Assembly: GCF_005862305.2 (NCBI RefSeq)
Contig: NZ_CP054021.1
Span: 1,426,001-1,490,000 of the forward strand
Length of the DNA: 64,000 bases
Source of the DNA: Rhizobium indicum
GTDB lineage: Bacteria; Pseudomonadota; Alphaproteobacteria; Rhizobiales; Rhizobiaceae
Direction of reading: 5' to 3'
In this document: positions 2,802 to 57,585 of the stretch, one piece after another
Numbering within the stretch: the stretch's first letter is position 1
How the letters are laid out: each line of letters opens with the position of its first letter
The notes under the pieces: model-generated
The model's database searches: none
Told to the model about the DNA's origin: nothing
The model's input: only the letters and a program-made list of their open reading frames with translations
Made by a program: the position numbers and the translations under genes

Positions 2802-2817
2802 GCGCGGGATCTCCGGT

Positions 2818-3390: not shown

Positions 3391-3502
3391 GGTGTTGTCT
3401 CGCTGTTGATGGCGGGGAAATGGGAACGGGCGTCGAAGCGCCTCGGGCGTGATTGGTGACAAACAATACTCGGCGTCGTCATCGACGCAGGAGATCGCCG
3501 AC

Positions 3503-3643
3503 TGCCCCTCATCCGGCTGCCGCCACCTTCTCCCCGCAGGCGGGGAGAAGGGGATATGCCGCGCCGGCTTCGTCAATCTCGACGTTGCGTTTGGCACGTC
3601 CCCTCTCCCCGTTTTTACGGGGAGAGGGTTAGGGTGAGGGGCA
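3503..3643. repeat. RIME-like rhizobial intergenic palindromic element
   Basis: The element is bounded by TGCCCCTCA at 3503 and its inverse TGAGGGGCA ending at 3643. Inside are two strong hairpins: CCTTCTCCCCGC/GCGGGGAGAAGG at about 3527-3551 and CCCTCTCCCCG/CGGGGAGAGGG at about 3600-3628. Two hairpins inside terminal inverted repeats is the layout described for RIME elements of Rhizobium. It lies between two phage structural genes. Confidence 0.8.
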
Positions 3644-3696
3644 GCCATCGGCACGAACTGGATGAGGGGCAGGCCGCGTATGGAGAGGTCGACGAA

Positions 3697-3716
3697 ACGG
3701 GCGCCAAAGCGCCCGT
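3697..3716 (-). terminator. Hairpin after the decoration-like gene
   Basis: ACGGGCGC and GCGCCCGT form an 8-bp stem with a 4-base loop, a few bases beyond the stop of the minus-strand gene ending at 3722. In that direction only a short T run follows, so termination would be weak or factor-assisted. Confidence 0.5.
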
Positions 3717-3721
3717 CGATG

Positions 3722-4507: not shown

Positions 4508-4529
4508 TTGCTTTTCCTTTCGTTGACGA

Positions 4530-5504: not shown

Positions 5505-5520
5505 TGATCATTCCTTTTGA

Positions 5521-6594: not shown

Positions 6595-6629
6595 GTCGGA
6601 AAGTTCCTTTGTCGGGGGTTGATGCCCGT

Positions 6630-6941
6630 TCAGGCGTTGTATTCGGCGTGAACTCGCCGCAATTCATTGCGGATCGCCTTTCGATCCGCTTTCGGCTTCT
6701 CGATCGGCTGTGGCTTTTCGTTGCCGATCTCGACCACGCCGGCCGCCCGGTAGGCGGAGCGCAGCTTGGCTTTCGAGGTGTAATGCCTGCCGTCATGCAT
6801 CGACTGGATATCGATGCTGTCACTGACGAAATGCGGCGCCGGCAGATCCGACTGCGCCGAGTTTTGCGCCGGCATGCAGTTGTGCGGCCATTTATCGAGC
6901 GCGTGCCAGCCACCGCAGACGCGGCAATAGCGTTCTCTCAT
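6630..6941 (-). CDS. Small phage protein with zinc-ribbon-like N-terminus
   Basis: A 103-residue protein between the portal and scaffold genes, with GGAGTGAAAG before the ATG at 6941. The N-terminus carries CRVCGGWHALDKWPHNC, a Cys/His set that could bind one zinc ion. The C-terminal half is basic and helical (KPKADRKAIRNELRRVHAEY). It contains SMHDGRHYTSKAKLRSAYRAAG, which resembles the short regulatory FmdB-type segments found in other phage head clusters. Its function is not known; the metal site is inferred from residue spacing. Confidence 0.6.
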   Translation of the reverse strand: MRERYCRVCGGWHALDKWPHNCMPAQNSAQSDLPAPHFVSDSIDIQSMHDGRHYTSKAKLRSAYRAAGVVEIGNEKPQPIEKPKADRKAIRNELRRVHAEYNA

Positions 6942-6953
6942 CTTTCACTCCGT

Positions 6954-10654: not shown

Positions 10655-11093
10655 TGATATCTTCCAGCAATTGCGAAACCTCGCCGGTCACGGCGCCCTG
10701 GTCGGGCTCGACCTTGGAACCGTATTTCTTCGGCCTCAGCTTCTCGGCGACCCACTGCCGGGTGGCGATGCGGAGCTGCGAACGCCTTATGGCCTCGCCA
10801 TTCTCCTGCCAGCCGGTGGTCTCGCCGCTCGCATTCTTCTTTTCGATCCAGTCGTTTGCGCGGTCATCGGCAATCTCGACCATCTCGTCGACAAAGCCGT
10901 CCGCCTGGATCTCGCGCGCCAGGGCATATTTGACCCGAAAACCGGCCTTGTTCTCATCGGCTAGCCAGGAGAGCACGCTCGACATCGCCGGCATCTCTTC
11001 ATCCCGACAAATCGACCGGAGGCTTTCCCTGTCGGCGATGCGCTCGCAAATCCTGTCGGCAATCGCCTGGGTGAACTTCGTCGGTCTGCCCAT
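10620..11093 (-). CDS. Terminase small subunit
   Basis: A 157-residue protein. The N-terminus MGRPTKFTQAIADRICERIADRESLRSICRDEEMP followed by VLSWLADE is the helix-turn-helix typical of Sf6/phage-type small terminases, which recognise the packaging site. A helical oligomerisation region follows (IRRSQLRIATRQWVAEKLRPKKYG), ending in a variable tail. The gene overlaps the large subunit by 35 bp, the usual arrangement. AAGG lies before the ATG at 11093. Confidence 0.88.
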   Translation of the reverse strand: MGRPTKFTQAIADRICERIADRESLRSICRDEEMPAMSSVLSWLADENKAGFRVKYALAREIQADGFVDEMVEIADDRANDWIEKKNASGETTGWQENGEAIRRSQLRIATRQWVAEKLRPKKYGSKVEPDQGAVTGEVSQLLEDINGKTRGLPNGN

Positions 11094-11115
11094 ATGGCCC
11101 GCCTTCTGGAGGGTT

Positions 11116-11352
11116 CTAGAACAGTGCGACGATATTGGAGGCCGTAGTCCCGGTCAGCGCCACAATGGCAGCGTGAACCGGCAGGATCGTCCCGGCCGGC
11201 ACGTTTCTGAAGATGACAGGATCCATGTCCCGGCGCGGCGCAATGGCAACATCGCCCGCCGTGCCGATATAAAGCGCGCGCGCACCGACGATGGCAGTAT
11301 CGTTCGGAGTCACCACTGCCGCCCGCGAGGCCGGAGCAATCGAAGGGTCCAT
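11116..11352 (-). CDS. Small spike-base-like phage/GTA protein
   Basis: A 78-residue protein and the first gene of the visible structural operon, with a strong ribosome site (AAGGAG) before the ATG at 11352. It has AVVTPNDTAIVGARALYIGTAGDVAI and FRNVPAGTILPVHAAIVALTGTTASNIVAL. This is the pattern of the short beta-rich proteins known from gene transfer agents as spike base protein (RCAP_Rcc01079 type) and common in alphaproteobacterial prophages. It lies upstream of TerS rather than in the tail block, an arrangement I believe is frequent in these prophages. Confidence 0.65.
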   Translation of the reverse strand: MDPSIAPASRAAVVTPNDTAIVGARALYIGTAGDVAIAPRRDMDPVIFRNVPAGTILPVHAAIVALTGTTASNIVALF

Positions 11353-35049: not shown

Positions 35050-35610
<561 letters not shown>

Positions 35611-37685: not shown

Positions 37686-38154
37686 CGTCCCCGCTATCCA
37701 GGCGCGCCTCCGTTAATCGCGGTCAGGCACACTGTGAGAATGCTGCAAGGTGCAGCGCACCTTCCCCAAGCTCCTGACATGTCGGGCTTTCCAGAAAGAG
37801 CCAAACATCTCCAGGACTGCAACGAGGGCGCAGAACTGCCGTTGATTGGAAGTGGGACGATAATCTTCGGACCGGCAGCGGAAATAATTTCCGTCAAGGC
37901 GCAATGGTCCCAGGTTCTGAGCTCTGGCCCGATGGCATGGGGACTTGTACCTTCGGTGCTTCAAGAAGACATTCAGCATTGCTGTCACAGCCCCAGAGCG
38001 GACCCCGCAGCCTGTAGGTCGGCTGCTCCTGTCGATCGATCTGCGATGTATTTCACATGTGATATTGGTTATTGTCCTGGGGCTGTGAGCGGTTTCATTA
38101 AGCGATCGTTCACGTATTCAAGGGGTTTGTACGTTTGCGTCCGGAGCTTCGATC
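37686..38154. other. Non-coding region before the large regulator
   Basis: No convincing gene, RNA or repeat was recognised. Short open frames exist but lack ribosome sites and known motifs. The end carries the ribosome site GGAG of the gene at 38155. Confidence 0.5.
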
Positions 38155-41061
38155 GTGCTTTCCTACTTCTTTGGCCCGTACGTACTTGTACCAGAGCGGC
38201 AGTCGCTGATGCGGGATCAGACGGCCGTTCGTGTCGGTAGCCGCGCACTGGAAATTTTGGCGGCGCTGATCGAGCGTCCCGGCGAACTGGTGGGCAAGGC
38301 TGAGCTTGTGTCGCGCGTCTGGCCGGATACCTTCGTCGAGGAAAGCAATCTCAAGGTAAACGTTGCAGCTCTTCGTCGCGCGCTTGGCGATGCTCCGGGC
38401 GACATGCAATACATAGCGACGGTGAGCGGCCGGGGCTATCGGTTCGTCTTTCCCGTGCGTATTTCGGGGCAGAATGACACCTCCGTCACGGCGAAGGCTC
38501 AAGGTGCCCGCACGCACAATCTGCCTGTTTCAACAACCCGTTTGGTGGGAAGAGGCGATGCTGTTGATGCAATCCGGTGCGCACTTGAGGTATCGCGCCT
38601 CTTGACGATCGTTGGCCCGGGTGGCGTCGGCAAGACGAGGTTGGCTCTCGCAATAGCTGATCAACTTACTGCTGCGTATCACGATGGCATCTGGTTCGTT
38701 GATCTGGCGACCGTGAACGATGCAACTCTCGTACCGACGGCGATCGCCACGGCGATGGGATTGAGGGTCCACTCGGCGAAGATCAAAGCTGCGGTCGCCG
38801 CCTTCGCAACCGACCGGGAATTCATGCTTGTGCTCGACAATTGTGAGCACGTCATCGAAGCGGTGGCCTCCTGCGCAGAAACGCTCCTGGCCGCCGCCGC
38901 GAGGGTACGGATTCTCGCCACGAGCCGTGAACCCATGCGGGTTGTCGGAGAACAGGTCTATCGCCTGCCGCCTCTCGAAACACCACCCGAAGTGTCCGAA
39001 CTGTCCGCAGCCCAGGCTTTGGCGTTCCCAGCGGTGGAGCTCTTCGTCGAGCGCGCGGCCGGAAGTCGCGGCGAGTTCAAGCTTAACGACGGGAACGCGC
39101 CAGTCGCTGCTGAGATCTGCCGCAGGCTCGATGGGCTGGCACTCGCGATCGAACTCGCTGCGCCGCGACTGGATGCGTTCAGTACACGCGAACTCCTCGA
39201 CCTTCTCGCCGATCAATCTCATGTGTTGAGCGATAGGCGGTGTGGCGACCCTCGCCACCACACCTTGGCTGCAACGCTGGACTGGAGCTATGGCCTGCTC
39301 GCCGAGCCTGAGCGCGTCCTGCTGCGACGCCTCTCGGTCTTTGCAGGCGCCTTCAGTCTCGAATCGGCCTGCGCCGTTGCAGTCGACAAGGGTCGTGCCC
39401 GCTCCGGATGCATTCACGGTGTCGCGAACCTCGTTGCGAAGTCGCTTATATCGACGGAGAGAGGAGAGCTCGGGACGCACTACAGATTGCTCGATACAAC
39501 CCGCAAATATGCGCTGCAGAAACTTGCCGAGAGCGGCGAAAGCAACAGCCTGCGCCAGCGCCACGCCGAACATCTCCTCGAACTCGCCAAACGCGCCGAG
39601 GCGGAATGGAAAATCCGGCCGACGGCCCAATGGCTCGCCGAGTACGGGCGAAAGATGGACGATATCCGCGGTGCTTTGGGCTGGGCGTTCTCCGGGAACC
39701 GCAGCGTTGCCACCGGCGTAGCGCTCACGGTTGCTGCTCTCCCGTTTTGGGAACATCTTTCGCTCCTGGAGGAGTGCCGCACCGGGGTAGAACTCGCTCT
39801 CAGTCGTTGTTTTGCCGATTTCCGTAGTGCGAGCGACGACATGAAGCTGCAGCTTGCCTATGGCACGGCGCTGCTTCACACCCGCGGCCCGCTGCCCGAA
39901 GTCAAGACCGCCTGGACCACAGCCCTCGGCTCCGCCGAAGTGCTCAACGACACCGAATACATGCTCAGGTGCCTGTGGGGATTGTGCGACTATTTCACCT
40001 GGACGGGCGATCACCAATCGGCCTTGGGGATGGCGGATCGGATAAGAAAGCTGGCAACCGACCGCGGCGATCTGGATGCACGCAACAATGTCGATAGGCA
40101 GACTGGAACCGCTCTGCGCTACTTGGGAGAGCTTGGCGAGGCACGGCGTCACCTCGAACGCATGATCTCCCGATATGTCCCTCCCGTGACCCGTTCCGAC
40201 ATTGCGCGTTTCCAGTTGGACCCACGATCTGCGGCAAGGGGCACCCTTGCGAACGTCACCTGGCTGCAGGGGCATCCCGACAGGGCGGTTGCCATGGCGC
40301 AGCGTCAATTGGAAGAGGCACGGGCCTCGCAGCACGCCCTCGCGCTCTGCAATGCCATCGTCCACACGACCTGCCCCATTGCACTGTGGACGGGAGACCT
40401 TGCTGCCGCGGAGCGCCTGCTTGTTGGCATCGAAGCCCATGTCGCGGAGCACGCGATGTCGATTTGGAGTGCCATGAGCCGCTGCCTGCGCGCAGAGTGG
40501 TTGCTGCAAAGCGGTGATCCGTCTGGACTGGCGATGTTGAGAGGCGCGCTCGATGAGCTTCTTGTGGTAGGTTTCCGCATGCGTTGCCCTTTCTATATCG
40601 GCGTTTACGCTGCGGGTCTGGGGGATCATGGGGACGTTGATGCGGGGCAGACCGCGATCGGCGAGGCAGTCGCGCTTTCGGCATCGACCGGCGAAATCTG
40701 GTGCATGCCGGAACTGCTGCGCATAAAGGCGGTTTTGTTGGGCAAGGAAAGCGCCAACCGGACGGTAAAAGCCGCAGAAGCCCTTTATTTTCAGTCGCTC
40801 GACCTCGCGCGCCACCAAGGTGCACTGTCATGGGAGTTGCGCGCCGCAACGGCTCTCGCCGAGCATTGGGCTCAGTCGGGACAAAGCGAAAGGGTTGGCG
40901 GGCTTCTGGCACCGATTTATCGACGCTTCGGCGAAGGGCTCACCACCCGCGATCTGGTGAAGGCGCGCGCACTCCTCGATAGCCTGGGGGATGCTGGCAA
41001 GGGGAGCAAAAGCGCTGCTCGTCAGGCTCGTCGCGATGGGCATACAAGTCCGAATTCCTAG
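38155..41061 (+). CDS. Winged-helix regulator with NB-ARC/AAA ATPase and TPR domain
   Basis: A 968-residue protein with a GTG start at 38155. Residues 5-100 form an OmpR/CadC-type winged helix (ALEILAALIERPGELVGKAELVSRVWP, VAALRRALGD, YIATVSGRGYRF). Residues about 125-400 are a STAND-type ATPase: Walker A GPGGVGKT at 154-161, Walker B LVLDNCE at 225-231 and the ILATSREPMR sensor. The rest is helical TPR-like repeats with GTALRYLGELGEARRHLERM and others. Such proteins switch transcription when a ligand releases the ATPase. It faces the MFS gene, whose stop overlaps its own. It may control the redox cluster downstream. Confidence 0.85.
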   Translation: MLSYFFGPYVLVPERQSLMRDQTAVRVGSRALEILAALIERPGELVGKAELVSRVWPDTFVEESNLKVNVAALRRALGDAPGDMQYIATVSGRGYRFVFPVRISGQNDTSVTAKAQGARTHNLPVSTTRLVGRGDAVDAIRCALEVSRLLTIVGPGGVGKTRLALAIADQLTAAYHDGIWFVDLATVNDATLVPTAIATAMGLRVHSAKIKAAVAAFATDREFMLVLDNCEHVIEAVASCAETLLAAAARVRILATSREPMRVVGEQVYRLPPLETPPEVSELSAAQALAFPAVELFVERAAGSRGEFKLNDGNAPVAAEICRRLDGLALAIELAAPRLDAFSTRELLDLLADQSHVLSDRRCGDPRHHTLAATLDWSYGLLAEPERVLLRRLSVFAGAFSLESACAVAVDKGRARSGCIHGVANLVAKSLISTERGELGTHYRLLDTTRKYALQKLAESGESNSLRQRHAEHLLELAKRAEAEWKIRPTAQWLAEYGRKMDDIRGALGWAFSGNRSVATGVALTVAALPFWEHLSLLEECRTGVELALSRCFADFRSASDDMKLQLAYGTALLHTRGPLPEVKTAWTTALGSAEVLNDTEYMLRCLWGLCDYFTWTGDHQSALGMADRIRKLATDRGDLDARNNVDRQTGTALRYLGELGEARRHLERMISRYVPPVTRSDIARFQLDPRSAARGTLANVTWLQGHPDRAVAMAQRQLEEARASQHALALCNAIVHTTCPIALWTGDLAAAERLLVGIEAHVAEHAMSIWSAMSRCLRAEWLLQSGDPSGLAMLRGALDELLVVGFRMRCPFYIGVYAAGLGDHGDVDAGQTAIGEAVALSASTGEIWCMPELLRIKAVLLGKESANRTVKAAEALYFQSLDLARHQGALSWELRAATALAEHWAQSGQSERVGGLLAPIYRRFGEGLTTRDLVKARALLDSLGDAGKGSKSAARQARRDGHTSPNS

Positions 41062-42260
41062 CGCGCTAGCGCTCGCGTACGGCGATCCAACATGAGAAGG
41101 ATCGGAGCGATCGCGGCAATGCCCGCGAAGATTGAAAAGGCCTCGACGTAGCGCGTACCTTCGGCGGCCATGATGTGCAGCGATGCCGGGCCAAGTCCAG
41201 CGCCCATGGTCAAAGCCATGTAGTTGATGCCGAAGAGCTTGCCGAAGCTTCGCATTCCGAACCGTTTCGACAGCAGGTAACCGATCGCGTCGCCCTCCGC
41301 TCCGGTGGCGAGGCCGAAGAAGACGGCGCTGACATAGACGGGGATCAGAGCTTCGGAATTCAACAGAATGAAATGACCGACAACGGGTGACAGAAAAGCC
41401 AGGCTGGTCAACGGGACCGGGGGAAATCGATCGAGCAGTGCCCCGAAGCCGAGACGCATGACAATGAAGGACAACCCCACAAGGCTCATGACCAAGGCCG
41501 CCATTGCCGGATCCGCTCCGCGATCCGCCAGCACGACAGGGAGCGAAATAGACCCGGCTGCAGCGGCGAAGTAGTTGAGAAAAAATGCGCCCAGCATCAA
41601 CCAGAAGCTTGCCGTCTCCACCGCCCGGCGAACAGTGTGGCCCTCGCCCCCTGTGCGGTCGGGTCGCTGAAGCACGGGCGGATCACGAATAACGAAAAGC
41701 GCGACGGGAAGCGTGACCGCAATTGATATCAGACCGGCTGCCATGAAGGCAAAGCGCCAGCCCCACTCGGAAATCAGGAATGCAAGGAACGGAGGAAGCG
41801 TTGCGATCCCAAGCCCCACGAAGGAAAGCATGACACCCAGTGCGAGACCGCGTCGCGCGGAGAACCATCCGACCACCACATAGGTGTAGGGCACGCCGGT
41901 CTGCGCGGCACCCATAAGGCTTGCCACGGCGACGGCCACGATGAATGTAGTCAAATTCTGCGACGCAATGCCGACCCCGATCAGGCCGATCGCCATCGAC
42001 ATGGACGATACGGCAAGCACCCGGCGCGGGCCGAACCGATCCGTCAACGCCCCTACTACAGGCGACATAAGACCGTTTACGACGGCTATCGGTGCGACGA
42101 CGGCGGCCACCACGGTCCGATCCCACCCAGTATCCTCGGTGATCGGCACGATGAAAACGCTGAAGCCATAGATCAGCACGATCCCGATGCTGAAATACAT
42201 TCCCGCGCCTGCACCCAGCACGATTGCAATCCGTCTGGTCCGCCCCGCCGTTGTGTCCAT
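41058..42260 (-). CDS. MFS transporter
   Basis: A 400-residue 12-helix permease. The start is the ATG at 42260; its ribosome site AAGGGAT is close. The stop (CTA in plus sense) shares CTAG with the convergent regulator. It carries the major facilitator signature loop DRFGPRRV after helix 2, a second loop near LDRFPPVP, and a long hydrophilic loop around residue 190 (VIRDPPVLQRPDRTGGEGHTVRRAVE). It resembles the monocarboxylate/oxalate-type (MCT-like) transporters. Substrate unknown. Confidence 0.87.
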   Translation of the reverse strand: MDTTAGRTRRIAIVLGAGAGMYFSIGIVLIYGFSVFIVPITEDTGWDRTVVAAVVAPIAVVNGLMSPVVGALTDRFGPRRVLAVSSMSMAIGLIGVGIASQNLTTFIVAVAVASLMGAAQTGVPYTYVVVGWFSARRGLALGVMLSFVGLGIATLPPFLAFLISEWGWRFAFMAAGLISIAVTLPVALFVIRDPPVLQRPDRTGGEGHTVRRAVETASFWLMLGAFFLNYFAAAAGSISLPVVLADRGADPAMAALVMSLVGLSFIVMRLGFGALLDRFPPVPLTSLAFLSPVVGHFILLNSEALIPVYVSAVFFGLATGAEGDAIGYLLSKRFGMRSFGKLFGINYMALTMGAGLGPASLHIMAAEGTRYVEAFSIFAGIAAIAPILLMLDRRTRALAR

Positions 42261-42447
42261 ATCCCTTATGAGCCTTTGTTGGCCCCGGTCCGGGGGCCGC
42301 GGTCCGCGCGCAGGAAGATACCAGGTCGCCGTTATCGTACTGACCGGATGGCTGCTCGGTTCACCAAATTTCCCAGATCTTAACCAGCCTCGCAAGCGCG
42401 GACGCGCTAGAATTTGCGCAGTCACCCCGCGAACACAGGAGGCAACG

Positions 42448-43299
42448 ATGTCTCGCGATCAAAAGCCAGCTACCCAACCGGACGACCCGGAGCGCCGAGC
42501 CATCCTTCGCGCCGCCGGAGGCGTTGCAATCGGCGGAATTGCCGCTGCCCTAGCAGGCGATGCAACTGCGTCCGCAGATACGCCAGTCGCAACCGGCGAT
42601 CCAGGTTCGCTGGGTGCCCGGCTTCAGGGCGTACAGCATTTCGGCCTGACCGTGCAGAACATGGAACGCGCGTACGAGTTCTACACAGCCGTACTCGGTG
42701 GGACCGAAGTCTTCCGCCATGGTGACTTTCAAGGCGACGCCGTGCAGAACACACTGCTTGCCGACCAGGAAATCCTGGCCAATCAGCTCGGCGTCAATCC
42801 GCGGACGATCGGCGTGCCTGACCTCAGGGACGGCGCCCAACGCCTCGATGTGCGATTCATCCAGTTCGACAACGTCGTTATTGAGCTCTTGCAGTATCGC
42901 GATGCGGACCAACCGATGGGTGGTCCCAAGGCGTTCGCGGAACCTGTGGAGCACATGAGCCCGGCTTTTCCGCGAATGATGCACATCTGCTTCTACGTCC
43001 GGGATGATGTCGACTTCAACCAGTTTATCGCCGATCTCGAGGCGGAGTCCGAGCGGCGTGGCATGACGCAGGTGCGGGCAAATCGCATCATACGTGTTTC
43101 GACAGAAGACGAACGAAAGGCGGCCCCCCAGAGCGCCAACACCAACAAAGTGACCGTTGCGCCATCAGACGGCTGGGAACTGATCTATTGCAAGGGCCCG
43201 GAGGGGGAACAACTGGAGTTCGTGAAGGCGCTTGGATCCGTGAAAAAACGGTTTGCCGATGCATTGGCGGCGCATCTGCAACTTGCGAGCGCGAAGTAA
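42448..43299 (+). CDS. Tat-exported VOC-fold protein
   Basis: A 283-residue protein with AGGAGG before the ATG at 42448. The signal (ERRAILRAAGGVAIGGIAAALAGDATASA) carries a twin arginine, so the protein would be folded before export. The VOC region is VQHFGLTVQNMERAYEFYTAVLGGTEVFR, NVVIELLQYRD, MMHICFYVRDDVDFNQFIADLE and DGWELIYCKGPEGEQLEFVK. An HxE-type metal site is possible. It begins a run of co-directional redox genes (43392, 43945) that face away from the MFS gene. Confidence 0.82.
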   Translation: MSRDQKPATQPDDPERRAILRAAGGVAIGGIAAALAGDATASADTPVATGDPGSLGARLQGVQHFGLTVQNMERAYEFYTAVLGGTEVFRHGDFQGDAVQNTLLADQEILANQLGVNPRTIGVPDLRDGAQRLDVRFIQFDNVVIELLQYRDADQPMGGPKAFAEPVEHMSPAFPRMMHICFYVRDDVDFNQFIADLEAESERRGMTQVRANRIIRVSTEDERKAAPQSANTNKVTVAPSDGWELIYCKGPEGEQLEFVKALGSVKKRFADALAAHLQLASAK

Positions 43300-43391
43300 G
43301 CGCAGAAGGCATCAGCATCACTTTGCAGGCCGGCACCCGGATTTGGCCAGCGGGCCATCTTACCGCGCTTGGCAAGATAAGGAGAAACGAC

Positions 43392-43820
43392 ATGATCACT
43401 ACGCTGCAGCTGCAAGCTTCGGCTATTCTGCTCGGGGGCCTGCTCGCGGGACCCGTTCTCCAAGCGGACGCGCTCGCTCAGGAAGGCCCGGGCCAGGGCT
43501 ATGCCAAAATTGCAAGTGGGGCCTATTCGGTTGTTGCCGAGGTCCGTGCCAAACCGGGCAAGGAGGCCGAACTACGGGCCGTCACGCTTCCTCTTATTGA
43601 CCTTGTCCGCAGCGATCCCGCAAACCTCGTCTATTTTCTTCAGGAGAACCGTGAGACCCCCGGACACTTCATCTTCTACGAGATATTCGCCAACGAAGCC
43701 GACTTTGAGGCTCATAACGCCATGCCGTATGTGAAGGAGTGGTTTGCCAAGCTGCCCGAACTCGCCGATGGCGGAGTGAAGGTGATGCGAATGCAGATCC
43801 TCGCGCCGGCTGGCGACTAG
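43392..43820 (+). CDS. Exported ABM-domain (putative quinol) monooxygenase
   Basis: A 142-residue protein: Sec signal MITTLQLQASAILLGGLLAGPVLQADALAQ, then an antibiotic-biosynthesis-monooxygenase fold (YSVVAEVRAKPGKEAELRAVTLPLIDLVRSDPANLVYFLQENRETPGHFIFYEIFANEADFEAHNAMPYVKEWF). Family members such as YgiN act on quinols without a cofactor and are usually cytoplasmic; an exported one is unusual. AAGGAG precedes the ATG at 43392. It lies 92 bp after the VOC gene. Confidence 0.82.
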   Translation: MITTLQLQASAILLGGLLAGPVLQADALAQEGPGQGYAKIASGAYSVVAEVRAKPGKEAELRAVTLPLIDLVRSDPANLVYFLQENRETPGHFIFYEIFANEADFEAHNAMPYVKEWFAKLPELADGGVKVMRMQILAPAGD

Positions 43821-43944
43821 CACGCTTCCCACGAAACTGGACGTCGGCGAACGAGGGCCATCGCGGATTGCTCGGGGAAGAGCACGCCGCGCCGCAGGCG
43901 CCGCTTTTGCACACGACACCATCAAGCCAAGAAGGAGCTGCAAG

Positions 43945-44664
43945 ATGAGACTCAAGGGCAAGGTTGCATTGGTCACAGGAGCCGCAGGTGGTATCGGTTT
44001 CGCAGTCGCGGATCTGTTCAATAGCGAGGGCGCCATTGTCATCGCCGCCGACATCAAGCCGTCCGAAAAACCATATCCCGACGCCGTCGAAGCAGTGACG
44101 CTTGATGTGACCAGCGAAGAGCAATGGGCAACGGTCGTTGCCGCGATCGTCAGGAAACATGGCCGACTTGACGTGCTTGTAAACAATGCCGGCATTATCG
44201 CCTACGAGCCGCTCGACAAGCTGGAGATGAAGGACTGGCTGAAGATGATCGCCGTCGACCAGACTGGTGTCTTCCTCGGCATGCGGGAAGCAATTCGCGT
44301 CATGCGCAAGCAGCAAGCGGGTGCGATCGTCAACATCTCCTCGATCTGGGGCAGTGCAGCGGTTGCGGGTGCGCATTCCTACCATGCCGCAAAAGGTGCA
44401 GTCCGCAACATGTCGAAAAACGCGGCGATGACGTACGTATCCGACGGGATCCGGGTCAACTCCGTGCATCCGGGCTTCGTACACACGCCGCTGACGGATG
44501 CACAGGCGCCAGAGCTCAATGAAGCTGTCATCGCGGCAACACCGATGAAGCGCGGTGGCAGGTCGATCGAGATCGCCTACGGCTGCCTGTATCTAGCTTC
44601 CGAGGAGGCAAGCTACGTGACCGGCGTCGAGTTGAACATCGACGGCGGTTATCTTGCCCAGTAG
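43945..44664 (+). CDS. SDR-family oxidoreductase
   Basis: A 239-residue classical SDR with AAGGAGC before the ATG at 43945. It has TGAAGGIG (nucleotide loop), ADIKPS, NNAGI, catalytic Ser in VNISSIWGS, Tyr and Lys in SYHAAKGA, and the C-terminal VTGVELNIDGGY. NAD(P)-dependent and cytoplasmic, it is the only soluble member of this operon. It is followed by a hairpin at 44691. Confidence 0.9.
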   Translation: MRLKGKVALVTGAAGGIGFAVADLFNSEGAIVIAADIKPSEKPYPDAVEAVTLDVTSEEQWATVVAAIVRKHGRLDVLVNNAGIIAYEPLDKLEMKDWLKMIAVDQTGVFLGMREAIRVMRKQQAGAIVNISSIWGSAAVAGAHSYHAAKGAVRNMSKNAAMTYVSDGIRVNSVHPGFVHTPLTDAQAPELNEAVIAATPMKRGGRSIEIAYGCLYLASEEASYVTGVELNIDGGYLAQ

Positions 44665-44690
44665 CGCAATAGACATGCGGGTCATCGCGG

Positions 44691-44712
44691 GCGGCTCTCT
44701 CTTACGAGCCGC
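44691..44712 (+). terminator. Hairpin after the VOC-ABM-SDR unit
   Basis: GCGGCTC/GAGCCGC, a 7-bp stem with an 8-base loop, 27 bases after the SDR stop. No T run follows, so termination is probably factor-assisted. The rest of the region to 45361 is non-coding apart from the scar at 45042. Confidence 0.45.
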
Positions 44713-45041
44713 AGACGCGATCAGTCAGACAACTTGATCCGGACCTTGTTCTCCATTTTTCGGGACCGTCTTGGGCAAGAGTCGGGAACGAATCCATCCG
44801 CGCAGTCGTGCGCGTCAGCAGTGAATGTCTGCTTTCGATTCCGTTAGCGCAAACGCCAATGACTGGATTGGGGGCGTATGACCGCCGCTCAGCGCCGCAA
44901 CCTTCATGGTCCGCTTTGGCGGATGTTTTTGAAAGCCTAGTATCTTTCCCCTGGTCCGGGCGGCAGATATTTGGGCCACGTTGCATATTGCCTCCTGAGG
45001 TCATCGATATCGGCTCCGTCAGGTAAATGGCCGAAAATAAC

Positions 45042-45097
45042 CGGCCTTCCCCAACGGCACGCCGGAGGAGCTGGCCGCCTAATATCGGCAGGTGATG
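45042..45097 (+). pseudogene. Scar of a LysR gene 3' end
   Basis: GGCCTTCCCCAACGGCACG followed by CTGGCCGCCT and ATATCGGCAGGTGATG repeats the last 20 codons of the LysR gene at 34793-34850, with small differences and one extra A that would break the frame. Everything before it is unrelated. It is the only trace of a paralogous regulator here. Confidence 0.7.
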
Positions 45098-45271
45098 GCC
45101 GCGCTGCCGGTGTGGCGGGTCTGGCCTAGGACCGATCGACAATACTCCTACCGGCATTTGTCGAGCGCTGAGCAATCGTCCGAATTCAGAAGCTCCATTT
45201 CTAAACCCATGCAGATATTCCCGCCTAATCGGATGATCTCGTGGGGCTTATATCACTAACCGCCAACATGA

Positions 45272-46512
<1,241 letters not shown>

Positions 46513-46581
46513 TCAAGCGGCGCCCGCTGGCATTTCCGAAGCCGCCACAGGTCACATTTCCCATATCCAGAAAGGATCCTC

Positions 46582-47049
46582 ATGCCATCGTTCCGTTCTG
46601 TCCTTCTAGCCCTCGGTGGGGCCGCTCTGCTCCTAGCATCCGGCCTTGCCGCCGCAGCCGCCAACCGCGCGACCTTCCCGAAAGATTTCAAGCAGATGGT
46701 TATGTATGGAGATTACAGGCGCGGCTCAGGTGGCGAGCTGGCTTATGCCCTGAAGGAAACGATCGACATCGCGAAGGCTGGCCAGCCGTTACCCCCGGGC
46801 ACGAGGCTTGTACTGGAGATTTATGACGACGGTGCCCTAACCGGCTACTTCGTGATGGAAAAAGGCGTGGATTGGGGCCTCGAAGTCGAGGAGGAGAAGC
46901 GCACCGGTGACTGGCATTTCCAGCAGTTCGACACCAACGGCCAGGTCAACCGCACCTCGATCGCGGAACGTTGCGAGGCCTGCCACCAAGGGCAGGAAAG
47001 CAATGATTTCATGTTCACCCGCGGCCGCATGGAAGCGTATCTGCCCTGA
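46582..47049 (+). CDS. Cytochrome P460-family protein
   Basis: A 155-residue exported c-type cytochrome: signal peptide MPSFRSVLLALGGAALLLASGLAAAAA, then a P460-like fold (FPKDFKQMVMYGDYRRGSGG, LPPGTRLVLEIYDDG, GYFVMEKGVDWG) and a single heme motif CEACH at residues 131-135. Members are linked to hydroxylamine or NO oxidation, although many short ones only transfer electrons. It is coupled to the next gene (TGATG). An 89-bp gap separates it from the AKR gene. Confidence 0.85.
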   Translation: MPSFRSVLLALGGAALLLASGLAAAAANRATFPKDFKQMVMYGDYRRGSGGELAYALKETIDIAKAGQPLPPGTRLVLEIYDDGALTGYFVMEKGVDWGLEVEEEKRTGDWHFQQFDTNGQVNRTSIAERCEACHQGQESNDFMFTRGRMEAYLP

Positions 47050-47726
47050 TGCCGCTTCAGGTTCGCCTGCTGATGAACGCCGTGGCGGGTGGTCTGCTAG
47101 TGGCTGCCCTGGCCTATGATTGGCTGGGCAACCTTACCCATGAACTGATCGGCACGGCCATGTTCGGGCTGCTGATCTTCCACAACGCCTTCAATCGCCG
47201 CTGGTACGGTTCGACCGCCCGCAAGGGTAGCCGGGATCTGCGCGGCTGGCTCAACATCGTCACCATCGGCGCACTCGCGGCCGCAATGCTAAGCCTGCTG
47301 GTCACCAGCTTGATCATTTCGCGCTCTCTATTCAGCCTCTTGCCGATTGCCAGCTCGTTCGGGGCACGTCAACTGCACGCCCAGGCCGCCTATTGGGCGC
47401 TGGTGATCGTCGCGGTCCACGTCGGCATGCGCTGGGCCATGATCATGGCCTCGATGCGCGCCTGGCTGCGACTTGGCACCCCCAGCGTCGGTAGGACTTG
47501 GATCCTCCGCGCCCTGGCGCTGGCCGTAGCCGCCTACGGCGTCCACAGCTGGATGGTCATGGGTACCGGGTCGCGCCTTATGGCCGAAATGACTCTTAAT
47601 CTCTGGAATTTCGAAGAAGCGGCATTGCGGTTCTTTTTGCACCAGGGCGCCATTGTTGCGCTGTTCGTCTGCCTCGGGCACTACGCAACCAGCCTAATGC
47701 AATTGCGCAGGAAAGGCTCACGCTGA
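47049..47726 (+). CDS. DUF4405 membrane protein (cytochrome b561-like)
   Basis: A 225-residue protein with about five or six transmembrane helices (VAGGLLVAALAYDWL, ELIGTAMFGLLIFHNAFNRRWY, LNIVTIGALAAAMLSLLVTSLI, LHAQAAYWALVIVAVHVGMRW, LRALALAVAAYGVHSW, FLHQGAIVALFVCLGHYATSL). His residues sit in the helices (HE, FHN, LHAQ, VHVG, HSW, LHQG, GHY), suitable for one or two b-type hemes. Its start overlaps the P460-like stop, so the pair probably works as a membrane electron relay to the exported cytochrome. Confidence 0.8.
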   Translation: MPLQVRLLMNAVAGGLLVAALAYDWLGNLTHELIGTAMFGLLIFHNAFNRRWYGSTARKGSRDLRGWLNIVTIGALAAAMLSLLVTSLIISRSLFSLLPIASSFGARQLHAQAAYWALVIVAVHVGMRWAMIMASMRAWLRLGTPSVGRTWILRALALAVAAYGVHSWMVMGTGSRLMAEMTLNLWNFEEAALRFFLHQGAIVALFVCLGHYATSLMQLRRKGSR

Positions 47727-47743
47727 GTGGCATTCCGTCACAA

Positions 47744-47905
47744 ATGACAGGTCGCGATTTCGATTCCCATCAAGACCCGATATGGCCGCTTCTGGCGGAT
47801 ACCGCTGACAAAGTCGCGTCGCAGGTGATGACCGCCTTTGCCGGCGTCATGGATGAGCTCCGCGTCGCATGTTTCATGGAGCGCGCAGCGGCTTATACGG
47901 GATGA
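47744..47905 (+). CDS. Possible small protein or gene fragment
   Basis: A 53-codon frame, 17 bases after the DUF4405 gene: MTGRDFDSHQDPIWPLLADT then ADKVASQVMTAFAGVMDELR and VACFMERAAAYTG. The composition is protein-like (amphipathic helix). There is no good ribosome site and no recognised motif. It may be a remnant; the rest of 47727-48080 shows nothing. Confidence 0.3.
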   Translation: MTGRDFDSHQDPIWPLLADTADKVASQVMTAFAGVMDELRVACFMERAAAYTG

Positions 47906-48080: not shown

Positions 48081-48623
48081 ATGAAAAGGTTAGCAATCGT
48101 TATCCTGTCGCTGGTGACGGCGCTGACGAGCGTCCCGCCGGCCATGGCGTTTCCCACTGTTGCCGTGCCGAAAATCGAAGCCGCAGAGGCGCAGCCGGTC
48201 CAGTACAGAAATTATCGCGGCGGCTACCGCGGTGGATACCGAGGCGGCTATCGAGGCTACCGCGGGGGTGGCTATCGCAACGACAATTGGGCTTGGGGTC
48301 TCGGCGGGCTCGCGACCGGCGCAATCATCGGCGGAATGCTAGCGCAGCCGTATTATGGCCGAAGCTATTACGGTCGGGGCTACTACGATCAGGGCTACTA
48401 CGACCGGGGCTACTACGGATCGCCCTATTACGGTCCGCCGCGCTACTACGGCTCGACCATTTACCGTCCGCGCTACTACGCGCCGCGCTCGTACCGCCAA
48501 GTCTATAGTGGCGGCAACGGACATACGAGCTGGTGCTACTCGCGCTACCGGTCTTACAGGGCTTACGACAACACGTTCCAGCCCTATTACGGTCCGCGAC
48601 GGGCGTGCGTCTCGCCCTACTAG
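48081..48623 (+). CDS. BA14K-family surface protein
   Basis: A 180-residue exported protein. After the signal (MKRLAIVILSLVTALTSVPPAMA) comes a glycine/tyrosine repeat (YRGGYRGGYRGGYRGYRGGGYR). A hydrophobic glycine hinge (WGLGGLATGAIIGGMLA) follows, then a second repeat (YYGRGYYDQGYYDRGYY) and the BA14K signature WCYSRYRSYRAYDNTFQPYYGPRRAC near the end. BA14K proteins are lectin-like and immunoreactive in Brucella and occur in most rhizobia. AAGGAAAG lies upstream of the ATG. Confidence 0.9.
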   Translation: MKRLAIVILSLVTALTSVPPAMAFPTVAVPKIEAAEAQPVQYRNYRGGYRGGYRGGYRGYRGGGYRNDNWAWGLGGLATGAIIGGMLAQPYYGRSYYGRGYYDQGYYDRGYYGSPYYGPPRYYGSTIYRPRYYAPRSYRQVYSGGNGHTSWCYSRYRSYRAYDNTFQPYYGPRRACVSPY

Positions 48624-48682
48624 GCTCAGGACTTATTAATTTGGTTTGAGATGTGATTCAGGCTTCCAACAGGAGGTCTGTG

Positions 48683-49018
48683 ATGGGTGATCTGTTTCTG
48701 CTGAGCGAGCGCCAGATGGCGCGGATATCGCCGTTCTTCCCGCAGTCGCGCGGGGTTCCGCGGGTCGATGACCGGCGGGTGGTGAGTGGGATCGTCTACG
48801 TGATCCGCAATGGCCTGCAGTGGAAGGACGCGCCGGCAGGTAATGGGCCGCACAACGCTCTACAATCGCTTCATCCGCTGGAGCCGGCTCGGCGTCTTCG
48901 ATCGCATCTTCGCTGGGCTCACCGGCGGACGGTCCAGGCCTGGGCGCATCATGATCGACGCGACTCATCTGAAAGCCCACCCGCACGGCTGCGAGCCTGC
49001 TTAAAAGGGGATGTTCCC
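48683..49018 (+). pseudogene. IS5-family transposase remnant with frameshift
   Basis: The first frame gives MGDLFLLSERQMARISPFFPQSRGVPRVDDRRVVSGIVYVIRNGLQWKDAPAG, the opening of an IS5-type transposase. After about 48854, near CACAACGCTC, a two-base loss shifts the reading; the second frame continues TLYNRFIRWSRLGVFDRIFAGLTGG then RIMIDATHLKAHPHGC. The similarity ends near 49018, with the DDE catalytic core missing. The 5' flank from 48624 (AGGACTTATTAATTTGG) may be the insertion end. The element is inactive. Confidence 0.8.
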
Positions 49019-49090
49019 GATTGGGCGCGTTGTGCCGATCGCGGAGACAATAATCTCCGCGTCCAGCCCCATCGTTCGCAAGCCGGCGTC

Positions 49091-49477
49091 TCAGTCGGCA
49101 GAGAACTTCTGGACGGCGGTAACGTCGAAATAATCCCGCCACTCGACAATCTTGTCACCTTCGATCTCGAAAATGCCCATGATCATCACGCGTCCGATTT
49201 CGCTGCCGTCGGCACGCTCGAACCTGTCGAGCCTTTCGGTGAGAACGCGAGATCCGTCGGCGGCAATCGCGAGCATGTCGATATGGACCGTCGAGATGCC
49301 CATCGACGTCTCCAGTCCGTCGATCATGGCGATAGCCTCTTCGACGCCGTTCGTGACTGAAACGCCTTCGTTGACCCAGCGCGTGTTGGGTGTGAACCAG
49401 CGACGGACGGCTGGCCTTCCGCCGTCTTCCAAGAATGTGGCGCAAAAAGCCGAAACAGTTTCCGTTGGGGTGGGCAT
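49091..49477 (-). CDS. Limonene-1,2-epoxide hydrolase-like (SnoaL) protein
   Basis: A 128-residue NTF2-fold protein with AAAGGAAC before the ATG at 49477. TERLDRFERADG and KIVEWRDYFD carry the Arg/Asp catalytic pattern of limonene-1,2-epoxide hydrolases. VSAFCATFLEDGGRPAVRRWFTPNTRWVNEG is the fold opening. It is divergent from an AraC gene at 49637 and could remove an epoxide or related compound. An ATTGCC/GGCAAT pair lies in the gap (49580 and 49614). Confidence 0.8.
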   Translation of the reverse strand: MPTPTETVSAFCATFLEDGGRPAVRRWFTPNTRWVNEGVSVTNGVEEAIAMIDGLETSMGISTVHIDMLAIAADGSRVLTERLDRFERADGSEIGRVMIMGIFEIEGDKIVEWRDYFDVTAVQKFSAD

Positions 49478-49636
49478 GGCAGTTCCTTTCAGGATGATTT
49501 AGAAGCCTCAACGGCCTCTGTGTTCAGCCTGAAGATAGGCTTTGAATCGCGACGCCACGATGCCAGATCTTCCGCTATCATTGCCTGATTTTCCGGAATG
49601 ATTGATAATTCTGGGCAATCGAGTTAAGCTGCCTTG

Positions 49637-50554
49637 ATGAGCGAACTCGACAAAATCCGCGCCATGGCGGTGCGCCACGCTGGCCGTCAGAGTCCTCAAC
49701 TGCCGAGACTGTTCGCTTACACCCTCGACCATACAACCGAGATCGACCCGCTGATCTACGATCCTGCGGCGTCCCTGGTGATCCAGGGAACTCAGCGCAT
49801 GTTTATCGGCGACAAGATGTTTGAGTACGGCCCTGGCCAAAGCATGATCGTCGCGGCTGAGATCGCTGCGTTGGGTCAGATCTGTGAGGCGTCAGAGGAT
49901 CAACCGTTTCTCGCAGTCGGTCTGTTTTTGGATCCAGCCCTGCTGTCGGATCTCGTACTTGAAATGGCAGCGATACCAGAGTTGCCGATTGAATCGGGAT
50001 ACGGCGTCAGCACCGCGAGCGCGTCGCTTCTGGGCGCTTGGGGAAGACTACTGGAACTACTCGATCGCCCAACCGAAATCCCGGTCATGGCTCAGTCTCT
50101 GGAGCACGAGCTCATGTTTCGGCTGCTGATGGGACCGCACGGCGGCCTGCTCCGTCAGATTGCCGGATCTGACTCGCGCCTGATGCACATCCGAAAGGCC
50201 ATGGCTTGGATCCGCGATCACTACACCGAGCGCCTCAATTTCAAGGCGGTCGCTGCGCTCGCGGGTATGAGCGTATCCGTGTTTTACGATCGCTTTAAAG
50301 CCGTTGCCGCCGTCAGCCCGCTTCAGTATCAGAAATATATCCGGCTCCACGAGGCCCGCCGTCGCATGATCGCGAACCAGGTGAGTGCAGCCGAGGTGGG
50401 GTTTGCGGTCGGCTATGAAAGCGCCTCGCAGTTCAGCCGTGAGTACAAGCGTCTCTTCGGAGCGCCGCCAGGTCAAGACACCGAGAGAGCGAAAGCGGGC
50501 TTGGGGGGAATCAATCGGCCAAGATCGCCTGGTGCTCGACCAGATGTTGCTTGA
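49637..50554 (+). CDS. AraC-family regulator
   Basis: A 305-residue protein starting at the ATG at 49637 (a TTG just before gives only a longer frame). The N-terminal AraC_N region has YDPAASLVIQGTQRMFIGDKMFEYGPGQSMIVAAEIAALGQI. Two helix-turn-helix motifs follow (LNFKAVAALAGMSVSVFYDRFKAVAAVSPLQYQKYIRLHEAR and VSAAEVGFAVGYESASQFSREYKRLFG). Its last codons overlap the GST remnant on the other strand. It is expected to act on the divergent LEH gene. Confidence 0.87.
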   Translation: MSELDKIRAMAVRHAGRQSPQLPRLFAYTLDHTTEIDPLIYDPAASLVIQGTQRMFIGDKMFEYGPGQSMIVAAEIAALGQICEASEDQPFLAVGLFLDPALLSDLVLEMAAIPELPIESGYGVSTASASLLGAWGRLLELLDRPTEIPVMAQSLEHELMFRLLMGPHGGLLRQIAGSDSRLMHIRKAMAWIRDHYTERLNFKAVAALAGMSVSVFYDRFKAVAAVSPLQYQKYIRLHEARRRMIANQVSAAEVGFAVGYESASQFSREYKRLFGAPPGQDTERAKAGLGGINRPRSPGARPDVA

Positions 50555-51048
50555 AACGGCGACCGTAGTCCCGCCCCACGGCCGCGACGACGCTCGCTCG
50601 TAGTGCCAAAGCCTCACGCCATATGGATACGCGTGGGAGACCCTGAAATATCATCTGCGTCACGGTCGGGTTGATGAGGTCGAAATACCGGAACAGAGGC
50701 GCGAACACCGCATCGACCATGCTGAACGTCGATCCAGAGAAGTAGGGCCCTTGGTCACGCACATCTTCGAGCCTCTCTAGCCGGTTTCGGAACGCTGCCC
50801 GCTTGGCGTCTGCGGTTGCACGATCCTTGGCGTTTAGGAGTTGCCAGGCTTCGGCTAGAGCCGCCGTACCATATTCGATCCACGCGCGCTGTTGAGCGCG
50901 AGACAGCGCGTCCTCAGAGTAGAGCCTTGCGCCGCCCTGCGTCTCCTCGAGATATTCGCAGATCACCATGCATGCTTTCGAACAGAGTTGCGTCCCAGTC
51001 ATCCGCTCGCTCCATCTTCGGCAAGGGCACCTTGGACGACATCACCCT
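50511..51048 (-). pseudogene. Glutathione S-transferase broken by a 4-bp duplication
   Basis: The helical C-terminal domain is intact (MVICEYLEETQGGARLYSEDALSRAQQRAWIEYG and SMVDAVFAPLFRYFDLINP). The thioredoxin-like domain is shifted: just upstream, in another frame, lie SKVPLPKMERADDWDATLFES, the glutathione-site segment. Between them CATGCATG at 50967-50974 appears as a 4-base duplication; removing one CATG joins LFES to MVICEYLEE. The first 50 or so codons before VPLPKM are also missing; the frame runs into intergenic sequence near 51048. The gene is probably non-functional. Confidence 0.75.
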
Positions 51049-56475: not shown

Positions 56476-57585
56476 TTAGATCACGAATCCCTCCTCGTAC
56501 GTCTGTGGCTCGGGAACGACCGTAACCTCCACTGGAACGATCCAATTGGCCGCGTAGCTCTCGCAGTCGGAACGCTGGAGGTCGGGCTGCACGCACCCCG
56601 CCCCATCGATCGCGCGACATCGCAGCATATATCGCCCCACTTCTTCAGGGGTCCACATGTACTCCCACAAGCGCCATGCAAAGGGACGGTCTGTTTCGAG
56701 AAGCCTTCCCTCGCGCCAGCCCCTGCCATCTCCGGTGCAGACCTGCACCTGCCGGATAGCAGCCTCTCCGCTCCAGGCGGCGCCGAAAATCCGGTACGGT
56801 TGGCCGGCGATGAGACGCGCCCCCTGTACGGGACGCGCGATCTGCGCTTTGACCTCCATCTCCGCAAGAGGGACCAGCCTGGGTTCCTCGAGGCTGCGCT
56901 CCCAACGGAAATAGTCGCGCGCCTGCCAGTAGCCAAGGAACGGTTGCTCCACAACCGTGATATGCGTGATCCATTTGACCCAAGCCATGCCGAACCAGCC
57001 ACCCACGACCGCGCGTAGCGGGTAGCCGTGATCGCGCGTCAACGGCTCCTCGTTCATCGAATAGGCAAGGATCGTGCTGTCAGCGATGGCCTTCTCAAGC
57101 GGTAAACTGCGCGCAAAAGCGATGGGGCCGGGAGAAGCCGTTTTCTTGTTCGTGTCGACGACGCCGCTGTCGGCGCCTGCGAGCAGAACCTCACGTGCGG
57201 TTGGCTTAACGCCCGCCATTTCCAAAATCTCGCGCAGAAGAACACCTGTCCAGGCGGCATTGCCGACGGCTCCGTTCTGCCACTGCAACCCCTCCTTCGG
57301 CGGCTCATAGTAGACGCGCCCGTTCCCTGCGCACTCGACGACGGCGGTGAAAGTCGTGCTCCGCATCGCCTTGATGCTGTCGAGGTCAAGTTCGATCGGC
57401 CGCTCCACCGCCCCGTCAACGCGCAATCTCCAGTCTCGCGCATCGAGGTCCGGCGACGGGAAATGGTTTCGCACGAAGAACTGCTCGGTTGGGATCAGCC
57501 AATCGGAGAGCGACGCAAACGGAAACTCGATGTTCGGTGGGGATTTCTGTCGAACTATTAGACTGGGTTGCTGTGGTGTCGGCAT
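56476..57585 (-). CDS. Sulfite-oxidase-like molybdoenzyme
   Basis: A 369-residue molybdopterin enzyme starting at the ATG at 57585 (GGGAGACGAGG upstream). FFVRNHFPSPDLDARDWRLRVDG is the family entry. Cys85 in VVECAGNGR is the molybdenum ligand. GAVGNAAWTGVLLREILEMAGV and LTRDHGYPLRAVVGGWFGMAWVKW complete the active site, and the C-terminal Ig-like dimerisation domain follows (IFGAAWSGEAAIRQVQV, EVGRYMLRCRAIDGAG). No Sec or Tat signal is visible, and no heme partner gene is adjacent. The upstream gap 57586-57910 shows no gene. Confidence 0.88.
   Translation of the reverse strand: MPTPQQPSLIVRQKSPPNIEFPFASLSDWLIPTEQFFVRNHFPSPDLDARDWRLRVDGAVERPIELDLDSIKAMRSTTFTAVVECAGNGRVYYEPPKEGLQWQNGAVGNAAWTGVLLREILEMAGVKPTAREVLLAGADSGVVDTNKKTASPGPIAFARSLPLEKAIADSTILAYSMNEEPLTRDHGYPLRAVVGGWFGMAWVKWITHITVVEQPFLGYWQARDYFRWERSLEEPRLVPLAEMEVKAQIARPVQGARLIAGQPYRIFGAAWSGEAAIRQVQVCTGDGRGWREGRLLETDRPFAWRLWEYMWTPEEVGRYMLRCRAIDGAGCVQPDLQRSDCESYAANWIVPVEVTVVPEPQTYEEGFVI

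What the first reader, a model, noticed from the sequence alone, without database searches (positions are those of the whole stretch)
38155..47726. Candidate undescribed exported redox module with a STAND-type regulator
A large winged-helix/ATPase/TPR regulator and an MFS transporter sit beside Tat-VOC, Sec-ABM monooxygenase, SDR, Tat-aldo/keto reductase, cytochrome P460-like and DUF4405 genes, all co-directional from 42448 to 47726. Four of the six products carry export signals and one is a membrane electron carrier candidate. A reasonable hypothesis is periplasmic oxidation and detoxification of a phenolic, quinone or nitrogen oxide compound, with import of the product by the transporter.
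Basis: inference. Interest (0 to 1): 0.7.

Follow-up and report, generated by a model that had tools for sequence, protein, structure and literature searches.

The report
Two neighbouring exported redox gene cassettes
What looked like one six-gene cluster in a Rhizobium chromosome appears to be two separate gene cassettes side by side, one a widespread detoxification-type set with its own local switch, the other a probable membrane-linked haem peroxidase set inserted next to it.

Summary
The genes are real and placed as described, but the six-gene "module" is two units. Module A (38155-44664: STAND-type regulator, MFS, Tat-VOC, Sec-ABM, SDR) keeps its order in 11 of the 13 closest named loci. 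Its core, VOC then ABM, is adjacent in 67 of 79 loci. A 25-bp element between the divergent MFS and VOC genes is conserved and occurs once in the 7.5-Mb genome. Module B (45362-47726: Tat-AKR, cytochrome, DUF4405) is absent here from R. johnstonii 3841, which is collinear on both sides; it recurs elsewhere as a trio. Its last two genes are adjacent in 27 of 29 DUF4405-positive genomes. The "P460" lacks the cross-linking lysine and distal carboxylate but has an invariant arginine aligned to the cap of Nitrosomonas cytochrome c'-beta, which is peroxidase-like. Proposed: A is a locally switched exported detoxification/catabolic cassette; B is a quinol-fed periplasmic peroxidase-like pair with a swappable exported enzyme. 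A and B still co-locate in two genomes, on opposite sides, so a functional link is not excluded. Substrates are unknown.

The parts
38155..41061 (+). Module A: STAND-type regulator, OmpR-type winged helix + NB-ARC/AAA
   Evidence: Pfam Trans_reg_C 61 bits, NB-ARC 25.8; orthologue next to MFS-VOC in 11 of 13 closest loci
41058..42260 (-). Module A: MFS transporter, divergent from VOC
   Evidence: MFS_1 E 5.9e-42; start chosen by gene caller and shared by orthologues
42360..42384 (+). Module A: conserved 25-bp element TTCACCRAATTTCMCNGATYTTMAC, predicted operator/activator site
   Evidence: conserved in 13 aligned intergenics; single site in the genome at up to 3 mismatches, control 0; regulator binding is inference
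42448..43299 (+). Module A: Tat-exported VOC protein with H64/E146/H179/E257
   Evidence: Glyoxalase; the four residues in 79 of 79, RR motif in 75 of 79
43392..43820 (+). Module A: ABM-domain protein with Sec-type N-terminus
   Evidence: ABM E 1.7e-14; next gene after VOC in 67 of 79
43945..44664 (+). Module A: cytosolic SDR with N/S/Y/K motifs
   Evidence: adh_short_C2 E 8e-59; motifs located; family in 19 of 79 loci
44665..45361 (.). 697-bp gap; collinearity with 3841 ends at 44938
45362..46492 (+). Module B: aldo/keto reductase with Tat signal
   Evidence: Aldo_ket_red E 1.5e-74; GRRDF N-terminus shared with L076, L078, L191
46582..47049 (+). Module B: exported c'-beta-type (P460-fold) heme c protein, CEACH at 131-135
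   Evidence: Cytochrome_P460 48.6 bits; R47 31 of 31, L78 29 of 31, F90 22 of 31
47049..47726 (+). Module B: DUF4405 membrane protein, predicted heme-b cytochrome
   Evidence: DUF4405 31.7 bits; H31, H45, H110, H124 in 31 of 31
44939..47887 (.). Segment carrying module B, absent at this site in R. johnstonii 3841
   Evidence: blastn; an autotransporter gene is there instead

Best explanation
The stretch holds two cassettes. Module A (regulator, MFS, VOC, ABM, SDR) is a locally switched detoxification or catabolic cassette. The STAND regulator senses a small molecule and turns on the divergent MFS and VOC promoters through the 25-bp element (inferred). The Tat-exported metal VOC protein and the Sec-exported ABM protein act on that molecule in the periplasm (co-action inferred from adjacency), the MFS moves substrate or product, and the SDR handles the resulting carbonyl or alcohol in the cytosol (inferred). 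Module B (Tat-AKR, c'-beta-type cytochrome, DUF4405) is a separately acquired electron-transfer unit. DUF4405 passes electrons from the quinol pool to a periplasmic c'-beta cytochrome whose open heme with a distal arginine reduces a peroxide or similar oxidant; the exported enzyme upstream, here an AKR, is an exchangeable partner. The two-unit structure is shown here; the chemistry and the electron direction are inferred.
For: Order of A kept in 11 of 13 closest loci; VOC-ABM adjacent in 67 of 79, regulator family within six genes in 48 of 79 although genomes hold only 1-7 copies. Conserved element between MFS and VOC, once per genome, none before AKR. 3841 lacks B at this site; trio recurs in L076, L078, L191. 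P460 next to DUF4405 in 27 of 29 DUF4405-positive genomes. Heme-pocket positions match NeCP-beta, which forms a ferryl species and oxidises guaiacol. DUF4405 purified elsewhere binds heme b. The gene before the pair varies: AKR, exported hydrolase with CMD, Tat-DLH, cupin.
Against: A and B lie within 8 kb in both of the 2 of 394 genomes that hold VOC and close-type P460 (Fisher p 0.005), which hints at a link. Six of 33 P460-positive relatives have no DUF4405 match. The element is missing at L145, which has both a regulator and an MFS homologue. No expression, binding or activity data. The DUF4405 fold search was uninformative. VOC fold matches are tied between epimerases and dioxygenases.
Confidence: 0.5

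Rival explanations
1. One reading: all six genes plus regulator and transporter work on one substrate, assembled by recruiting module B next to module A.
For: A and close-type B are within 8 kb in both genomes that hold both, of 394 searched; uncorrected Fisher p 0.005. All six genes are co-directional.
Against: 1 of 80 VOC loci has P460/DUF4405 within 7.5 kb; none of the 8 other VOC-positive relatives has the close-type P460; 3841 lacks B here; no copy of the 25-bp element before AKR.
Confidence: 0.2
2. Two unrelated accessory cassettes that share only a hot spot for acquired redox genes.
For: Variable gene content between SDR and BA14K in 3841; L191 carries B near homologues of the MBL and PNPOx-like genes that flank A here, as if such genes pile up.
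Against: Co-location twice on opposite sides is more than one would expect of a random site, though kinship and hot spots were not modelled.
Confidence: 0.4
3. Module B binds or detoxifies nitric oxide: a c'-beta NO carrier with DUF4405 as its reductase.
For: Hydrophobic residues at the lysine and carboxylate positions as in NO-binding c'-beta proteins (PMC11928373).
Against: The cap position is an invariant arginine, as in the peroxidase-like NeCP-beta, not the phenylalanine of McCP-beta.
Confidence: 0.25
4. Module B is a classical hydroxylamine-oxidising cytochrome P460 system.
For: Pfam Cytochrome_P460 and CxxCH.
Against: Position 78 is Leu in 29 of 31 (Val 1, Met 1) and never Lys; position 90 is Phe or Leu, never Asp/Glu; both are needed for NH2OH oxidation in the proteins of Table 2.
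Confidence: 0.04
5. Electrons run the other way: the exported enzyme and the cytochrome oxidise a substrate and DUF4405 delivers electrons to quinone.
For: Neighbour families include exported hydrolases, CMD and cupin proteins typical of catabolic loci; nothing in the sequence sets the direction.
Against: Known c'-beta potential is low (McCP-beta -205 mV), which suits a reductant of oxidants more than an acceptor from alcohols or phenols (inference).
Confidence: 0.2

Closest known systems
Cytochrome c'-beta of Nitrosomonas europaea (NeCP-beta, PDB 7s5o)
   Same: Best profile match (E 8.4e-17); Arg at the cap, no Lys, no carboxylate
   Different: Leu instead of Met at the lysine position; sits before DUF4405, while the review read here mentions no gene cluster or operon
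DUF4405 flavinylation-associated heme-b cytochromes (PMC11334425)
   Same: Pfam DUF4405 and four conserved histidines (paper passages)
   Different: Partner here is a heme c protein; an ApbE or FMN-bind neighbour was not searched for by profile
MsrPQ-type periplasmic enzyme plus heme-b membrane cytochrome
   Same: Works like it in outline: exported partner fed by a membrane heme-b protein; the paper likens DUF4405 to MsrQ
   Different: Partner is a heme c protein, not a molybdoenzyme (MsrP facts recalled); my fold search did not list MsrQ, which is inconclusive
VOC superfamily: methylmalonyl-CoA epimerase / glyoxalase I / extradiol dioxygenases
   Different: Tat-exported, with a long insertion; no solved sequence relative better than E 0.049
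Winged-helix STAND regulators (OmpR-type HTH + NB-ARC)
   Same: Trans_reg_C plus NB-ARC in one chain
   Different: Tied to VOC-ABM loci; NCBIfam hits fall far below their cut-offs

Membership tests
Cytochrome P460 (hydroxylamine-oxidising) | heme-cross-linking lysine | tested here: not met
   aligned position is Leu 29, Val 1, Met 1 of 31 (Table 2 of PMC11928373)
Cytochrome P460 (hydroxylamine-oxidising) | distal carboxylate (Glu/Asp) | tested here: not met
   Phe 22, Leu 9 of 31
Cytochrome c'-beta, NeCP-beta type | P460 fold family with CxxCH heme c motif | tested here: met
   Pfam Cytochrome_P460; CxxCH in 30 of 31
Cytochrome c'-beta, NeCP-beta type | no cross-link lysine, distal Arg cap | tested here: met
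   R47 31 of 31; position 78 never Lys; alignment to 7s5o
Cytochrome c'-beta, NeCP-beta type | peroxidase-like activity | not testable with these tools
   needs purified protein
DUF4405 heme-b cytochrome | four central histidines | tested here: met
   H31, H45, H110, H124 in 31 of 31
DUF4405 heme-b cytochrome | apbE / flavinylated neighbour | not tested
   not searched by profile; the paper says only a minority co-localise
MsrQ-like cytochromes | shared fold | tested here: inconclusive
   fold search filled by unrelated helical proteins
VOC superfamily, epimerase/glyoxalase I type | VOC fold | tested here: met
VOC superfamily, epimerase/glyoxalase I type | H/E/H/E metal ligands | tested here: inconclusive
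   H64, E146, H179, E257 in 79 of 79; that they are the ligands is my reading, not shown on the model
VOC superfamily, epimerase/glyoxalase I type | reaction type | not testable with these tools
   extradiol dioxygenases and HPPD tie within 1 Z
STAND NTPase regulator | winged helix plus NTPase with Walker A | tested here: met
   Pfam; GPGGVGKT at 154
STAND NTPase regulator | C-terminal repeat sensor (TPR) | tested here: inconclusive
   TPR_10 15.7 bits, below cut-off 27.5

The most novel reading that the evidence does not exclude
Module B represents an undescribed class of quinol-dependent periplasmic peroxidase: an arginine-capped cytochrome c'-beta re-reduced by a DUF4405 heme-b membrane cytochrome, working with an interchangeable exported enzyme (a Tat-AKR carrying its nucleotide, a Tat-dienelactone hydrolase, or an exported hydrolase with CMD), and recruited repeatedly beside the VOC-ABM cassette to finish the same detoxification.
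Probability: 0.2. Interest if true: 0.68.

Novelty: new variant of a known kind. Interest (0 to 1): 0.45.

Why it matters
A DUF4405 protein was recently shown to be a heme cytochrome, and only a minority of DUF4405 proteins sit beside apbE (PMC11334425, passages). Finding it directly beside an arginine-capped c'-beta protein in 27 of 29 DUF4405-positive genomes gives it a candidate partner here, and gives the unexplained peroxidase-like c'-beta proteins a candidate electron donor. The VOC-ABM core with a local regulator and a single predicted operator is a compact, testable switch found in Rhizobium and its relatives, and VOC-ABM itself in many other soil Proteobacteria.

Tried and rejected
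Rejected: one six-gene operon (697-bp gap, synteny break, element only before MFS/VOC); hydroxylamine-oxidising P460; chance placement of the regulator (own genome 3 full-length matches and one partial; 1-7 in ten others; my estimate is about 1% expected within six genes).

Weak or led nowhere: my signal-peptide heuristic also flagged all 19 SDR controls, so ABM export rests on reading its N-terminal extension, not on that count. The DUF4405 fold search was uninformative and MsrQ was not listed. The VOC model is moderate (pLDDT 70). A LysR gene lies near P460/DUF4405 in 28 of 33 anchored loci, but LysR genes are frequent in this window, so I give it little weight. The sigma-70 scan found 1 site against 3.3 in shuffles. 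A 58-bp match at 45039-45096 to the LysR1 region of 3841 gave no protein-level match.

Dropped or biased rows: L150 and L164 had no anchored VOC call (79 = 78 of 80 loci plus the window). Three of the 48 regulator-family loci rest on fragments of 94-167 aa (L114, L115, L140). L080 had no anchor (33 of 34). The loci were chosen because they carried VOC, P460 or DUF4405 hits, so for adjacency I rely on the two separate searches, compared by eye. The scan kept the best 80 of 142 relatives.

Literature: searches failed by time-out and one search was malformed, so module A's novelty was not checked in print. ('cytochrome P460' with 'DUF4405': 0 papers) is the only search bearing on module B. Papers: PMC11334425, passages; PMC11928373, outline, section 4 part 1 and passages; others seen as listing only.
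Full report
Setting. The window is G000:C1:1426001-1490000 of a 7.53-Mb genome. It is 98% identical over 38045-44746 to a stretch of Rhizobium johnstonii 3841, so it lies in or near the R. leguminosarum complex (inference).

Observation. The run 42448-47726 is co-directional, with gaps of 92, 124, 697 and 89 nt and a one-base overlap (coordinates). The 697-bp gap between SDR and AKR is the first sign that this is not one operon.

Module A. A scan with a VOC alignment gave 142 relatives, of which the best 80 were kept. In the 13 closest, L091-L103, eleven carry regulator, MFS, VOC, ABM and SDR in the same order. L096 has only MFS fragments, an SDR cut by the contig end and no close regulator beside them; L102 lacks the regulator. 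Over the anchored loci (79 including the window), ABM directly follows VOC in 67, a member of the regulator family lies within six genes in 48, a different aldo/keto reductase directly precedes VOC in 33, and the SDR family occurs in 19 (the other AKR is about 25% identical to the window's). In 7 loci a carotenoid-oxygenase-like gene joins. In several Caulobacter, sphingomonad and Azospirillum loci a LysR gene sits where others have the regulator. The loci are mostly Proteobacteria plus one Acidobacteria MAG. Genomes carry few regulator homologues, so 48 of 79 is far above chance.

A predicted local switch. Aligning 13 MFS/VOC intergenic regions shows one block, TTCACCRAATTTCMCNGATYTTMAC, conserved while its flanks diverge, followed by a TA..AT block (by eye TAGAAT at about 42408-42413 in the window). 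The block lies at 42360-42384, 88 nt before VOC and 100 nt before MFS. In the whole genome it occurs once at up to three mismatches; the reversed-pattern control gives none. In 99 sources scanned at up to four mismatches (1.96 Mb) every hit lies upstream of VOC in this arrangement. Not used to derive it were L071 (0 mismatches), L096 and L196 (1) and L152 (4); other hits are the 13 themselves or duplicate loci. L145, with a regulator and an MFS homologue, has none. There is no site before AKR. That the regulator binds this block is inference.

Module B. In 3841 the chromosome is collinear on both sides but 44939-47887 is missing and an autotransporter gene takes its place. AKR, P460 and DUF4405 recur in this order in L076, L078 and L191, each AKR with a Tat motif. 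L191 matches the window at 80% nucleotide identity over about 45393-47651 only. Of 18 related AKRs listed near P460, four carry a Tat motif: the window, L076, L078 and one in L180. The tighter unit is P460 plus DUF4405. Comparing two searches of the same 150 genomes, 27 of 29 DUF4405-positive genomes have P460 beside it (G004 and G066 do not), and 27 of 33 P460-positive genomes have DUF4405 (compared by eye). The gene before the pair varies: AKR, exported alpha/beta hydrolase with carboxymuconolactone decarboxylase, Tat-dienelactone hydrolase, cupin, and OYE-like or SDR genes in L192 and L194 (the OYE name is by eye).

What the cytochrome is. The profile's best solved relative is 7s5o (E 8.4e-17), cytochrome c'-beta of N. 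europaea. Table 2 of PMC11928373 (passages) gives its key positions as Met79 (lysine position), Ala109 (carboxylate position) and Arg46 (cap). In the printed alignment these fall, at a constant offset of 20 by my count, on L78, F90 and R47 of the window protein. R47 is invariant in 31 of 31; position 78 is Leu 29, Val 1, Met 1; position 90 is Phe 22, Leu 9. The same review reports ferryl formation and guaiacol oxidation by that protein and says the cross-link, or the lysine, prevents this activity. Hydroxylamine oxidation is therefore unlikely, a peroxidase-like role the best lead, and NO binding the main rival.

DUF4405. PMC11334425 (passages) purified one member and saw heme b, with four central histidines and a resemblance to MsrQ and PepSY cytochromes. 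Here H31, H45, H110 and H124 are present in 31 of 31. My model is good (pLDDT 88), but the fold search was inconclusive.

Are A and B linked? Against: 1 of 80 VOC loci has P460/DUF4405 within 7.5 kb, and none of the 8 other VOC-positive relatives has the close-type P460. For: of 394 Rhizobiaceae genomes, 7 hold VOC (E up to 1e-60), 7 hold P460 at 62% identity or more, and 2 hold both: the window's genome and G416, which is Sinorhizobium sp. A49 by two identical 300-base probes from L098. In both the two lie within 8 kb, B downstream of A in one and upstream in the other (Fisher p 0.005, not corrected for kinship). Two recruitments to opposite sides are suggestive, but accessory redox genes may simply pile up: L191 carries B near homologues of the MBL and PNPOx-like genes that flank A in the window.

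Verdict. A correct observation with a partly right reading: exported redox enzymes, yes; one module, no. The value lies in two separable hypotheses: a VOC-ABM cassette with a one-site local switch, and a c'-beta/DUF4405 electron-transfer pair for which one literature search found no joint mention. Other searches failed, so novelty is provisional.

Noticed in passing
window 1-11352: Phage late genes on the - strand: amidase, major head protein, portal, terminase large and small subunits (PHROGs).
   Followed up: partly
L067 17454-17708 against window 35050-35610: The PNPOx-like gene is intact in the window but internally deleted in R. johnstonii 3841.
   Followed up: partly
window 48623-51041: A second stretch absent from 3841: an IS5-type transposase remnant (48653-49360), a limonene-epoxide-hydrolase-like gene (49091-49477), AraC regulator and GST.
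   Followed up: partly
G000:C1:4795905-4797041 (L081): A second P460-DUF4405 pair in the same genome, with LysR, an exported hydrolase and a non-Tat AKR nearby.
   Followed up: partly
L105, L107, L147, L151, L159, L165, L170: A carotenoid-oxygenase-like gene (RPE65 family) joins the VOC-ABM cassette in these loci, a lead to a terpenoid-type or stilbene-type substrate.
   Followed up: no
G027:C2:2292715-2294023 (L071): The MFS gene of module A is interrupted in this relative (read in two pieces, one stop) while VOC, ABM and SDR remain.
   Followed up: no
L190:4797-5243: A P460-like protein that differs in the CxxCH heme motif while staying beside DUF4405.
   Followed up: no
window 56476-57426: A molybdopterin oxidoreductase of the sulfite-oxidase type (Oxidored_molyb, Mo-co_dimer).
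   Followed up: no
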